From positions 1,488,001 to 1,552,000 of the forward strand of contig NZ_CP049859.1 in the NCBI RefSeq assembly GCF_011400295.1: a stretch of DNA of 64,000 bases. The letters are read 5' to 3'. The stretch comes from Erysipelothrix sp. HDW6A (GTDB lineage Bacteria; Bacillota_I; Bacilli_A; Erysipelotrichales; Erysipelotrichaceae). Shown here in pieces: positions 52,535-56,814 of this stretch (the first letter of the stretch is position 1; each line of letters starts with the position of its first letter). Position numbers and translations under genes: made by a program. The notes beneath the pieces are model-generated. The model saw only the letters and a program-made list of their open reading frames with translations. It was not told the DNA's origin and searched no databases.

Positions 52535-52735
52535 TTAAGAACTGAGACTATTTGATTCTTTATAAGGAGCCAGTTTATAGCCTGTTAAGAATAATAACAG
52601 TCCTATTATTGAGAATACTGATAAGATAACGAATCCTAAGGATAAGCTACCTGTAATTTTGTGGACTTGTCCTAAGATAATTGGCAAGAGTGCTTTTCCT
52701 AAATACCCAGCTGTTGATAGCTGATTTCTATTATA
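52535..52735 (-). pseudogene. C-terminal stub of an MFS transporter, truncated at the prophage junction
   Basis: The minus-strand frame ending at the TAA at 52535 reads NQLSTAGYLGKALLPIILG and then two hydrophobic helices (LGFVILSVFSIIGLLLFL), ending YKESNSLSS. This is the last ~60 residues of a major facilitator transporter. Reading upstream, the frame meets a stop at 52736-52738 and similarity ends near 52724-52735. There is no start codon or ribosome-binding site, so it is not expressed as a protein on its own. It was the gene directly before buk on the same strand. Confidence 0.8.
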
Positions 52736-52750: not shown

Positions 52751-52841
52751 AGACGGTATTTTGATAATAAATATGAGTCGGTCACCAAAAAGTCACCAAA
52801 TATGCCTATGATTGTGAACAAACTCTATAATATTTCATAAC

Positions 52842-52916
52842 AAAAAAAAGAACTCCAGCGCTTGATTGAAGTTCATGATTATTACTATTTGGTATTTTTG
52901 TAAATGCGCTGGAGTC
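52842..52916 (-). terminator. Terminator-like hairpin T5 (long loop)
   Basis: On the minus strand ACTCCAGCGC and GCGCTGGAGT are perfect 10-base arms around 44 bases, followed by TCTTTTTTTT. The long loop makes it less certain than the others. Confidence 0.55.
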
Positions 52917-53100
52917 CGAATTCTTAGCATAGTGATGGCGATTATTGCTAAGAATTTAGCCATATCTCTAAGTGGCTTACCACTAGATATAATCGAGAGA
53001 CAGTCTGTGTGATATTTATCTAAGATTTAGCCACTATCCATGACTTTACTATATTGTATCAGTCTTTCTTCAATAGTAAGTGTATAGACTGTGTGAAACA

Positions 53101-53135
53101 GAAAAAAAGACCCAAGGACAGGGGCTTTGGGTCTA
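53101..53135 (-). terminator. Terminator hairpin T4
   Basis: On the minus strand AGACCCAA and TTGGGTCT form an 8-bp stem, extendable inward, followed by seven T. Confidence 0.85.
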
Positions 53136-53233
53136 GATACGTTATATTGTGGTGCATGCATAAAGAGTTTTATAAAAACATTTTCAATATTCGATAACGC
53201 ATCTATTTATTATCTTAGCACATCACCATATTA

Positions 53234-53266
53234 AAACAAAACCTAGAGATTGGCACACCTCTAGGC
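53234..53266 (-). terminator. Terminator hairpin T3
   Basis: On the minus strand CCTAGAG and CTCTAGG form a 7-bp stem around 10 bases, followed by TTTTGTTTT. Confidence 0.8.
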
Positions 53267-53283
53267 TTTAAGGATTTTATGAT

Positions 53284-53364
53284 ATGCCCATAGTATACAT
53301 ACCACAAATTAATTATATATTATTATTTAGTAAAAGAAAACCAGAGCCGCCACCCTGGTCTTAA
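53284..53364 (+). CDS. Doubtful 26-residue ORF (possible decayed toxin-type peptide)
   Basis: AAGGA lies 9 bases before an ATG. The peptide has a short hydrophobic stretch (VYIPQINYILLF), then basic KRK and a Pro-rich end PEPPPWS. It has the hydrophobic-then-basic plan of small type I toxins but the hydrophobic part is too short for a clear membrane helix. Its 3' end is covered by the oppositely oriented transcript that would end at T2. It may be chance. Confidence 0.15.
   Translation: MPIVYIPQINYILLFSKRKPEPPPWS
53331..53361 (-). terminator. Terminator hairpin T2
   Basis: On the minus strand ACCAG and CTGGT form a short GC-rich stem (extended through GGTGGCGGC), followed by TTTCTTTT. Confidence 0.7.
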
Positions 53365-53437
53365 GTACATTGTCGCTGCACGGATGCACGTTAATCAACG
53401 TACCACCTTAGATTATCATATATCATTAATTAATCAA

Positions 53438-53472
53438 ACAAAAACTCGGAGAATATTTTCATAACTCCGAGC
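53438..53472 (-). terminator. Terminator hairpin T1
   Basis: On the minus strand CTCGGAG and CTCCGAG form a 7-bp stem around 13 bases, followed by TTTTTGTTT. It is the first terminator after the small membrane protein gene at 53542-53754. Confidence 0.85.
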
Positions 53473-53479
53473 CGGGATT

Positions 53480-53515
53480 TGTGACGCACTATGCTAAACA
53501 TTGAGGGTCGTCACA
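53480..53515 (-). other. Stem-loop between the small membrane protein gene and T1
   Basis: TGTGACG (53480-53486) and CGTCACA (53509-53515) pair around 22 bases. Together with T1 it gives a compact two-hairpin RNA of about 80 bases. Confidence 0.45.
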
Positions 53516-53541
53516 TTAATATTATACAGTATATAATTATT

Positions 53542-53754
53542 TTAGTGTATTTTAACTTTGAAAATTATTCCAATAATTGACAAAATGACTACACAAATTA
53601 CAGATATATTAATTCCATATTCACTTGAAAGTCTATTCATTTCATTAGCTTCTATTTTTCCAGACATGTATTTCTTGTTCGCAATATGTGTTCCTATAAC
53701 AAAAGAAACAACGATGATTATTATAATAATTATGATCGCTAGACTAATATCCAT
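53542..53754 (-). CDS. Small two-helix membrane protein
   Basis: A 70-residue protein with helix 1 made almost entirely of Ile and Val (about residues 4-22), a charged loop (KKYMSGKIEANEMNR), and helix 2 (about 50-66). GAGG lies 8 bases before the ATG and a TATAAT is about 20 bases further upstream. It sits between the secreted M23 peptidase and the non-coding prophage end, where superinfection-exclusion or other accessory genes are common. No family is recognised. Confidence 0.6.
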   Translation of the reverse strand: MDISLAIIIIIIIIVVSFVIGTHIANKKYMSGKIEANEMNRLSSEYGINISVICVVILSIIGIIFKVKIH

Positions 53755-53823
53755 TTCAATTACCTCGCTGTATTATAAATGTAACACATCATTTTAATAG
53801 AGTAAATAGTAGCATACAGTAAA

Positions 53824-53862
53824 TAAAAAAACACCCACTCTTAGATAGGAGAAATGGGTGTT
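53824..53862 (-). terminator. Terminator of the secreted M23 peptidase gene
   Basis: On the minus strand AACACCCA and TGGGTGTT form an 8-bp stem (with inner CTC/GAG pairing), followed by TTTTT. Confidence 0.88.
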
Positions 53863-53904
53863 CGCATATATCTAGAGGACATATACTAGACATATATTAT
53901 CATA

Positions 53905-55029
53905 TTATAATCCAAAAAGCCTTCTAAAATCTATTGTTGACCCAACCGATGTAGCTTTAACGTCATTAAGTCGAACTTCAACATGGAGATGAGGTCCATC
54001 AGAGTCTCCACTATTTCCAGATAACCCTAATAGAGTATTTGTTGATACTTTCTGACCAACAGACACTTTAATTGAATTTTGGCTTAAGTGACCATAGTAA
54101 ACAAAATATCTCTTTCCATCTTTCATTACTTCTACTACAACATGATTTCCAAAGCGATTTCCACAACCAGAACCGCGATATCCTTCAGTTGGACAAGATG
54201 CTTGTATCCTCCGTACTATTCCTTCAGCAATATTGAAAACCTTAGTTCCTCTTGAAACTCCTAAGTCTATACCAGTATGACCGGAGTAACATCCTATACC
54301 GCATGTAATTGGTGCATGTCTGTTTGCAACAGGATATACGTATTTATTTCCAGAAGGAGTAAGATCTGTAATACTCTTTATTCTACTTCCATGTCCGTCT
54401 CCATAATAAGATGGTTCTAAATATTCGTATAAGCGAACAGCATTTTGATTTTTATCATAGCCTACTGCGTGCTTTATAGCTGCATTAGGATACAACTCAA
54501 ATCTGAACTTTATTTTTGAACCATGTCCATCACCATACCATGCATCATGGTATTCATATGCTTGGGTGATCTCACCTTTTAAATTGTATGCTATTGCATT
54601 CTTAATGAACCCATTCGAATATGTGTTAAACTTAAACTTTATTCTACTTCCATGTCCGTCACCATAATAGGACGGTTCATGATATTCGTAAACTGCAATC
54701 AATTCCTGCTTTGTATTTCTTTCTCTAGAAAATTTTATGGCAGCATTTGGATATATTTCAAATTCAAATTTTATCTTTTTTCCATGATCTTGCCCATATT
54801 TCGTATTTGGGAAATATTCGTATACTCTTACTAATTCACCTTTATCATTGAACTCACGAGCAAACTTTATTATTTTGTTTGAATCTACTACAAACTGAAA
54901 TCTTCCTTCGATAATAGTGCTATCACTAGCTGCATAAACTTCTGATTTTTGATTAACCATCATTGCAGAAAATACTAGTAAGAACGCGACAAAAAACACA
55001 GTTAATTTTTGCAAACCTTTTTTTATCAT
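53905..55029 (-). CDS. Secreted M23 peptidase with four N-terminal repeats (accessory prophage gene)
   Basis: A 374-residue protein. Residues 1-33 are a signal peptide (hydrophobic core TVFFVAFLLVFSAMMV, cleavage near VYA-A). Residues about 42-216 form four repeats of about 44 residues sharing IKF-hydrophobic, YPNAAIK, then VYEY and YGDGHGS. The C-terminal part is a lysostaphin-type domain with zinc and catalytic residues in GHTGIDLG (His251, Asp255) and GPHLHVE (His347, His349), plus four Cys (243, 247, 279, 289) suggesting disulfides. It should cut peptide cross-links or a surface polymer outside the cell. It has its own terminator and a signal peptide, unlike the phage endolysin, so it looks like a lysogenic-conversion gene. 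The role of the repeats is unknown; wall binding is a guess. Confidence 0.85.
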   Translation of the reverse strand: MIKKGLQKLTVFFVAFLLVFSAMMVNQKSEVYAASDSTIIEGRFQFVVDSNKIIKFAREFNDKGELVRVYEYFPNTKYGQDHGKKIKFEFEIYPNAAIKFSRERNTKQELIAVYEYHEPSYYGDGHGSRIKFKFNTYSNGFIKNAIAYNLKGEITQAYEYHDAWYGDGHGSKIKFRFELYPNAAIKHAVGYDKNQNAVRLYEYLEPSYYGDGHGSRIKSITDLTPSGNKYVYPVANRHAPITCGIGCYSGHTGIDLGVSRGTKVFNIAEGIVRRIQASCPTEGYRGSGCGNRFGNHVVVEVMKDGKRYFVYYGHLSQNSIKVSVGQKVSTNTLLGLSGNSGDSDGPHLHVEVRLNDVKATSVGSTIDFRRLFGL

Positions 55030-55087: not shown

Positions 55088-55102
55088 ATCACAATCTGTG
55101 AT
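55088..55102. promoter_or_regulatory. Inverted repeat upstream of the secreted M23 gene
   Basis: ATCACA-ATC-TGTGAT is a perfect 6-base inverted repeat 59 bases before the start codon, in an AT-rich leader that also has GTTCGAAC. It could be an operator; no clear promoter was found. Confidence 0.35.
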
Positions 55103-55167: not shown

Positions 55168-55200
55168 ACAAAAAAAACACCCTCAATAAAGAAGGTGGAA
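55168..55200 (-). terminator. Terminator of the phage late (lysis) operon
   Basis: On the minus strand CACC and GGTG, extended by neighbouring pairs, form a short hairpin followed by eight T, just after the stop of the 55206-55457 gene. Confidence 0.65.
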
Positions 55201-55205
55201 AATTT

Positions 55206-55457
55206 CTAGTATCTATCTTTAATAAAATTTGTGCTTTCGATAACGATTAAACGCTTTTCGTGATCGTCAATTAACTCTGAATGATTATCGAGTCTTTTAT
55301 TTTGACTAATATCACTTCTATTTAGATGCTCTAGATTTGCGTTCAACTTCACTATTTCAATTGTAAGGTTGTGAGTAGGTTTATAAAACATGGTGTATGC
55401 TGTTCCCACAAAACCTAACATTGTGGTAACCACAAGGAATACGCTCCATTCTGTCAT
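55206..55457 (-). CDS. Small phage membrane-anchored coiled-coil protein (XhlA-like)
   Basis: An 83-residue protein with one N-terminal membrane helix (about residues 5-24) and a heptad-rich tail (KLNANLEHLNRSDISQNKRL and following). Small proteins of this shape (XhlA or DUF7365 type) lie near holin and endolysin genes and may assist membrane lysis or anchor the lysin. It ends the tail-lysis transcription unit. Confidence 0.65.
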   Translation of the reverse strand: MTEWSVFLVVTTMLGFVGTAYTMFYKPTHNLTIEIVKLNANLEHLNRSDISQNKRLDNHSELIDDHEKRLIVIESTNFIKDRY

Positions 55458-55460
55458 GAA

Positions 55461-56453
55461 TTACCCCACCTTACCATCAGACTTGGTTACCCACACTTTG
55501 TTTTGTGGAGCATCAAACAATTTATGCTGAATTTGCACTCGTCCATTTGCTTCACTTAGAATCGTGTATGATCGATCACCATTACTGTCTCCGTAGTTAG
55601 TACCGCCTGTTGATTGTGGATATAACTTTAACGGAAAACTCTTAGGAGTCCATGATTTACCAACATCACTCACAGGTCTACTTGGTTCTTTACTTAGAAA
55701 CTCTGCATCACCATAAATCTCTGAATTATCAAGCTTACGACGTGCACCATAGACTCGTATGCCTTCGTGAATCCACGATACCCAACGATAACCTTCTTCA
55801 TCGATATAATTATCGTAGATAACAGATTGACCCTTAGATAATCCTGTAACACGCTCTGAATTAACGCTAGGTTTTTTACGAACGTTTAGGCCATCTGCAA
55901 ATGTAACAGTGAATTTACCATCTTGTCTTACAAGAGAATCATCATCTGTGATGCTTGCCCAATCATTAGGCATTGCTTTCATATCAAGCACATCCATCTC
56001 AGGAGTTGTATAAATATAGTCATAAGGATTAACTCGAGGAGCATTAAACAATGCATCCCAAATGAAAGGTGTTCCTTTAGGTACAAAACACATACGAATA
56101 TGAGCGTGAGCACCAAATGATTTCCCACTATCTCCCATGTTACCCATTTGAGATGAGCGTGTAAGAATATCTCCTACTTTTACAATTGCTGCATACTGCA
56201 TATGTCCTGTCGCTACCCATACGTCTCGTTCATTGTCATATTGAGCACCTAAGGCTATGTTGTTTCCAGCATCTTTAAAGTATTGCGCCCCTAATACTTG
56301 CATTTCTCCAAGAGAATACAATGGTTGATTCGGGTTGTTGTATTTATTTCTCCAACCTAAGTCCATCGCATCGCCATTAGGATGTCCATCAAAGTTTACA
56401 AATGATTTATGAGCTGGAGATTGTAAGTAGTTCAATAAAATCGGTAGTCCCAT
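55461..56453 (-). CDS. Phage endolysin: M23 peptidase plus SH3 domain
   Basis: A 330-residue lysin without a signal peptide. An N-terminal M23 domain has FDGHPNGDAMDLG near residues 21-33 and FGAHAHIR (His116, His118) as metal and catalytic residues. A bacterial SH3 domain follows (about 190-255, DGLNVRKKPSVNSERVTGL), then a second, partly repeated SH3-like region (about 280-330). It should cut peptidoglycan peptide bridges once the holin opens the membrane. The ATG at 56453 has AGAGGG upstream and lies 1 base after the holin stop. Confidence 0.88.
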   Translation of the reverse strand: MGLPILLNYLQSPAHKSFVNFDGHPNGDAMDLGWRNKYNNPNQPLYSLGEMQVLGAQYFKDAGNNIALGAQYDNERDVWVATGHMQYAAIVKVGDILTRSSQMGNMGDSGKSFGAHAHIRMCFVPKGTPFIWDALFNAPRVNPYDYIYTTPEMDVLDMKAMPNDWASITDDDSLVRQDGKFTVTFADGLNVRKKPSVNSERVTGLSKGQSVIYDNYIDEEGYRWVSWIHEGIRVYGARRKLDNSEIYGDAEFLSKEPSRPVSDVGKSWTPKSFPLKLYPQSTGGTNYGDSNGDRSYTILSEANGRVQIQHKLFDAPQNKVWVTKSDGKVG

Positions 56454-56454
56454 A

Positions 56455-56814
56455 TTATTCGCCCTCTTTCGTTTGAATATCAGTATCAATTAGAAAGGCA
56501 TGATCATTCATACCCTTCACGATTGCTTCAATCCACATTGTTAATTCTTCATCAGAAATCTTGATACCAATATTATTAAGAGAACTTAGTGCTCGTTGTT
56601 TCGCAAGTTCTAGTTTTTTTTCACCAAATATTTTATTTCCAGAAACTTGTTCTACAAATTCAACTGCAGCTTTAGCTACTTTGATAATTTGCGCTTGTTG
56701 TTCGCTTGTAATCTTAATATTGATCCATGTCTTAAACTGTAAAGAAAAGTAACCTAAGATTAAGGTTACCAGTGTAATCAATGTAGGTCTTACAATTTCA
56801 AATAATTCATTCAT
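56455..56814 (-). CDS. Phage holin, LL-H family
   Basis: A 119-residue protein with a single N-terminal helix (about 8-27) followed by a charged helical domain (SEQQAQIIKVAKAAVEFVEQ). This matches the phage LL-H holin family (PF09682). It overlaps the upstream 80-residue gene by 4 bases. It would time the release of the adjacent endolysin. Confidence 0.85.
   Translation of the reverse strand: MNELFEIVRPTLITLVTLILGYFSLQFKTWINIKITSEQQAQIIKVAKAAVEFVEQVSGNKIFGEKKLELAKQRALSSLNNIGIKISDEELTMWIEAIVKGMNDHAFLIDTDIQTKEGE

What the first reader, a model, noticed from the sequence alone, without database searches (positions are those of the whole stretch)
53905..55029. Secreted repeat-bearing M23 peptidase as lysogenic-conversion gene
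It lies outside the lysis operon with its own leader and terminator, has a signal peptide and four ~44-residue repeats I do not recognise, with conserved YEY and YGDGHGS. Exported during lysogeny, it could remodel the wall, attack competitors or alter host interaction.
Basis: partly seen in the sequence, partly recalled or inferred. Interest (0 to 1): 0.6.

Follow-up and report, generated by a model that had tools for sequence, protein, structure and literature searches.

The report
Prophage-carried secreted wall hydrolase, undescribed repeats
A phage dormant in a bacterial chromosome carries, outside its lysis genes, a gene for a secreted cell-wall-cutting enzyme joined to four copies of an undescribed 44-residue repeat, which elsewhere turns up on several kinds of secreted enzyme, most of them wall-active, so it is probably a new wall-docking module.

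Summary
Window 53905-55029 (-) encodes 374 aa: signal peptide, four ~44-aa repeats, and an M23 peptidase domain with an intact zinc site (H251/D255, H312, H347/H349). The gene lies inside a 39.2-kb prophage. Its att core (TATCAACAGC) splits an MFS transporter gene, and joining the flanks restores the frame. The hydrolase is the last large gene between the lysis module and attL, bracketed by terminators and distinct from the phage's own endolysin.

The repeats match no Pfam, NCBIfam, PHROGs or PDB sequence. An iterated profile found them in three other genomes of the class, in secreted proteins with glucosaminidase, NlpC/P60, L,D-transpeptidase, C39-like or M23 domains. In the window genome's own family only this genome (1 of 272) has them. 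AlphaFold gives a confident single-layer beta-sheet resembling OspA, MORN and TarM/SdgB folds.

Best reading: a cellular-type wall hydrolase with an undescribed wall-association repeat, carried as an accessory (moron) gene. Expression in the lysogen, wall binding and activity are inferred, not shown.

The parts
53905..55029 (-). secreted M23 peptidase with four N-terminal repeats (374 aa)
54928..55029 (-). signal peptide (about residues 1-34)
   Evidence: basic n-region, hydrophobic core, AYA/A cleavage site; no dedicated predictor available
54772..54903 (-). repeat 1 (residues 43-86)
54640..54771 (-). repeat 2 (residues 87-130)
54511..54639 (-). repeat 3 (residues 131-173)
54379..54510 (-). 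repeat 4 (residues 174-217)
53959..54282 (-). M23 catalytic domain (residues 250-357), H251xxxD255, H312, H347xH349; cysteines 243, 247, 279, 289
   Evidence: fold match to LytM/DipM/lysostaphin, Z 16-18
53824..53863 (-). intrinsic terminator downstream of the gene
   Evidence: fold z -4.0, followed by a T run
55178..55197 (-). intrinsic terminator ending the lysis operon, upstream of the gene
52710..52719 (-). attL core TATCAACAGC
55206..56814 (-). lysis module for contrast: PF09682 holin (56455-56814), M23+SH3_5 endolysin without signal peptide (55461-56489), second small holin-like protein (55206-55457)

Best explanation
The gene is a phage-borne accessory ('moron') gene for a secreted, cell-wall-associated peptidoglycan endopeptidase. 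The signal peptide exports it. The four 44-aa repeats fold into one elongated single-layer beta-sheet and hold the enzyme on the wall or a wall polymer. The M23 domain cuts stem-peptide or cross-bridge bonds there. It is transcribed apart from the lysis operon and would therefore modify the wall of the lysogen, for example in autolysis, growth, surface properties or exclusion of other phages. Shown here: prophage location, architecture, intact active-site motifs, and related repeats on several cell-wall enzymes. Inferred: wall binding, enzymatic activity, expression in the lysogen, and benefit.
For: Prophage limits and restored MFS frame. Terminators on both sides. Signal peptide here and none on the endolysin. 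M23 hit, catalytic motifs and M23 fold Z 16-18. The repeat profile finds the same repeats in glucosaminidase, NlpC/P60, YkuD, C39_2 and M23 proteins, N-terminal or C-terminal to the enzyme. Profile comparison of the window repeats with repeat sets from other genomes only: E 3.9e-8 and 1.5e-6. Four of those genes lie among chromosomal housekeeping-type genes (neighbours named by eye from sequence).
Against: No expression data and no clear promoter upstream. No ligand is known; the fold resemblance to OspA, MORN and TarM/SdgB shows no function. One relative carries a C39-like domain, not necessarily wall-directed. The M23 tree is poorly resolved, so the origin of the domain is unsure.
Confidence: 0.6

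Rival explanations
1. The repeats are a latency pro-region: they cover the M23 groove until removed or moved, as the repetitive N-terminal regions of lysostaphin-type enzymes do.
For: A review states that M23 pro-peptides often have tandem repeated motifs (PMC9662197). The repeats are N-terminal here.
Against: The same repeats lie C-terminal to glucosaminidase in two proteins and precede unrelated enzymes in others, which fits a portable module better. They form a confident folded sheet (pLDDT 86).
Confidence: 0.12
2. It is a lysostaphin-like bacteriocin secreted by the lysogen against related bacteria lacking the prophage.
For: Secreted, basic (mature pI 9.1), M23 with a putative targeting module, mobile location.
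Against: No recognised immunity gene beside it: the only neighbouring ORF with a plausible RBS is a 70-aa membrane protein without a clear family. The architecture fits an autolysin as well.
Confidence: 0.13
3. It is a second, late-expressed lysin exported by Sec to help lysis or release.
For: It lies directly after the lysis module on the same strand.
Against: A strong terminator separates them. The phage already has a holin and an M23+SH3_5 endolysin, and the two M23 domains differ (28% identity, very long branch).
Confidence: 0.15

Closest known systems
Cellular coiled-coil M23 (PcsB/EnvC-like) hydrolases of the same bacterial family
   Same: M23 domain with a similar CPT-G...CG...GN cysteine-bearing insertion, up to 46% identity
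   Different: Those have a long N-terminal region that reads as coiled coil; here the N-terminal part is beta repeats
G101:C67 secreted M23 protein (locus L079)
   Same: Signal peptide, repeats of the same family, then M23
   Different: Chromosomal by its neighbours, diverged repeats, extra C-terminal region, low M23 similarity
Lysostaphin / LytM / EnpA-type M23 enzymes
   Same: Catalytic fold and HxxxD/HxH motifs
   Different: Lysostaphin is targeted by an SH3 domain (own knowledge); PDB sequence matches cover only the M23 part
MORN / OspA / TarM-SdgB single-layer beta-sheets
   Same: Predicted fold
   Different: No sequence match to MORN or related Pfam models; 44-aa three-strand unit with a short helix
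DUF2963 (PF11178) repeats
   Same: Tyr-rich short repeats, weak profile hit
   Different: Profile comparison not significant (10% probability)

Membership tests
Peptidase family M23 (PF01551) | profile match above curated cut-off | tested here: met
   66.5 bits against 28.7
Peptidase family M23 (PF01551) | HxxxD and HxH zinc motifs plus catalytic His | tested here: met
   H251-D255, H347-H349, H312
Peptidase family M23 (PF01551) | zinc-dependent peptidoglycan cleavage | not testable with these tools
   needs purified protein
Lysogenic-conversion (moron) gene | located within prophage limits | tested here: met
   att cores and restored transporter frame
Lysogenic-conversion (moron) gene | transcription unit of its own | tested here: inconclusive
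   terminators on both sides but no clear promoter
Lysogenic-conversion (moron) gene | expressed in the lysogen and changes host phenotype | not testable with these tools
   no expression data
Phage endolysin (canonical, holin-dependent) | no Sec signal peptide, within the holin operon | tested here: not met
   signal peptide present; separated by a terminator; a separate endolysin exists
Wall-binding families held in Pfam (SH3, LysM, GW, choline-binding and others) | profile match of the repeats | tested here: not met
   no Pfam hit outside M23 at E up to 1; none over the repeats of six relatives
MORN repeat | MORN sequence motif | tested here: not met
   no Pfam match
MORN repeat | single-layer beta-hairpin sheet fold | tested here: inconclusive
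   Foldseek E about 1e-7 to 1e-8 to viral MORN models but low TM-scores, 0.2-0.4

The most novel reading that the evidence does not exclude
The repeat is a general, undescribed wall-polymer recognition module shared by at least five classes of secreted enzyme in this bacterial class, and the phage captured it with an M23 domain to let its lysogens rebuild or defend their wall.
Probability: 0.35. Interest if true: 0.6.

Novelty: new variant of a known kind. Interest (0 to 1): 0.45.

Why it matters
Wall-targeting modules decide which bacteria a hydrolase attacks and are used to build antibacterial enzymes. A repeat family absent from Pfam, NCBIfam and PHROGs yet attached to glucosaminidase, NlpC/P60, L,D-transpeptidase, C39-like and M23 enzymes is a testable candidate for a new module. 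The prophage copy also shows how automatic provirus trimming can miss such cargo: the IMG/VR record of this same prophage stops at window 55206 and leaves the gene out.

Tried and rejected
Full-length and repeat searches of phages, plasmids, IMG/VR and genome contigs found no relative; degenerate DNA patterns in IMG/VR gave only unrelated frames. First profile hits to unrelated proteins (L024, L025, L029) were dropped as chance. DUF2963 kinship was not supported. A palindrome ATCACA-N3-TGTGAT upstream of the gene looked like a host regulon site, but three of the other four genomic copies sit in identical transposase genes and the fourth lies before a gene that reads as glycerol kinase, so the idea was dropped. 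No repressor-site link between the gene and the early region was found. No Rfam family in the region and no PADLOC match. The M23 tree did not resolve the domain's origin. Papers on Erysipelothrix prophages, searched on a guess at the host, gave nothing on such a gene; the genus of this genome was not established.

Full report
Observation. The ORF at 53905-55029 (-) encodes 374 aa: signal peptide, four repeats at residues 43-86, 87-130, 131-173 and 174-217, and an M23 domain at 250-357 (PF01551, E 2.4e-18). Zinc and catalytic motifs are intact. Repeat pairs score 78-152, against at most 52 in 2000 shuffles each. YEY is in all four; YGDGHGS is in three.

Where it lies. The window is G000:C1:1488001-1552000 of a 2.04-Mb single-contig genome. 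Tail genes, an LLH-type holin and an M23+SH3_5 endolysin lie upstream. Terminase, portal, replication, repressor-like and integrase genes follow beyond the window end (functions partly read by eye from sequence; the portal identity is backed). A 10-bp core TATCAACAGC occurs at window 52710-52719 and at genome 1579908. Joining the flanks rebuilds one MFS transporter frame, reading ...MAQLSTA-GYLGKALLPIILGQ.... The prophage is therefore 39.2 kb, and the M23 gene is its last large gene before attL. IMG/VR holds the same prophage, trimmed at window 55206, without the gene.

Transcription. A terminator at 55178-55197 closes the lysis operon, and a hairpin with a T run at 53824-53863 follows the gene. 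No good sigma-70 promoter is seen between, though an extended -10-like TGTGATACT lies at a dyad at 55088-55102 (read by eye from the sequence). Expression in the lysogen is thus plausible, not shown.

The repeats. No Pfam, NCBIfam, PHROGs or PDB sequence match covers them. A profile of the four (A1) found one convincing relative in 395 genomes of the class: a secreted glucosaminidase with six repeats. Two rounds of profile extension (A2, A3) found further carriers in G089 (four proteins) and G101 (one). The catalytic partners are glucosaminidase (G060, G089), C39_2 (G089), NlpC/P60 (G089), YkuD L,D-transpeptidase (G089) and M23 (G101). Comparing the window profile with profiles made only from other genomes gave E 3.9e-8 (A8, G060) and 1.5e-6 (A9, G089). 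These E-values come from single comparisons, and the carriers were found by iteration, so the G101 member, the most diverged, is the least sure. Four carrier loci examined (G089 x3, G101) lie among apparent housekeeping genes, so they are probably chromosomal. In the window's own family only this genome, 1 of 272, has the repeat, which suggests the phage brought it from elsewhere.

Structure. AlphaFold with a 17-row alignment gave pLDDT 81, pTM 0.60; the repeats alone gave pLDDT 86, pTM 0.77. Each repeat is three antiparallel strands and a short helix, which the matches suggest stack into one open sheet. Best solved matches are SdgB (Z 10.2), OspA variants (Z about 9) and TarM (Z 9.2); viral MORN models lead in BFVD. 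These values may mean only a common arrangement. The M23 part matches DipM, lysostaphin and ShyA at Z 17-18.

Origin of the catalytic domain. It shares a cysteine-bearing insertion with M23 proteins of the same bacterial family whose N-terminal part reads as coiled coil, and is up to 46% identical to them; the tree does not place it firmly. It is far from the phage's own endolysin.

Mechanism. Export by Sec, attachment to the wall through the repeats, local peptidoglycan cleavage, and a changed lysogen wall. The first step is predicted from sequence; the second rests on the repeat's partners; the third rests on intact motifs; the fourth is inference. Rivals are a latency pro-region (PMC9662197 notes repeated pro-peptide motifs), a lysostaphin-like bacteriocin, and a late helper lysin.

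Verdict. A real and somewhat unusual accessory gene: a known enzyme type with an undescribed repeat. Interest comes mainly from the repeat family, not from the M23 enzyme.

Noticed in passing
window 52838-53863: At least six terminator-like hairpins, all on the minus strand, in about 1 kb between the M23 gene and attL, with one small ORF; possibly an array of small transcripts. No Rfam match.
   Followed up: partly
window 53542-53754 (-): 70-aa membrane protein with a plausible RBS near attL, no clear family.
   Followed up: partly
window 52535-52687 and L037:7902-8984: The prophage splits an MFS transporter gene; excision would restore a protein of about 416 aa.
   Followed up: yes
L104 (IMGVR_UViG_2873593402_000002): Public provirus record of this same prophage is trimmed at window 55206; by its length it runs into the transporter gene on the other side.
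   Followed up: yes
window 55088-55102: Perfect dyad ATCACA-N3-TGTGAT upstream of the M23 gene; regulator unknown.
   Followed up: partly
G089:C40, C50, C15, C4: One 1.3-Mb genome carries the repeat on four different secreted enzymes, as if it used the module generally.
   Followed up: partly
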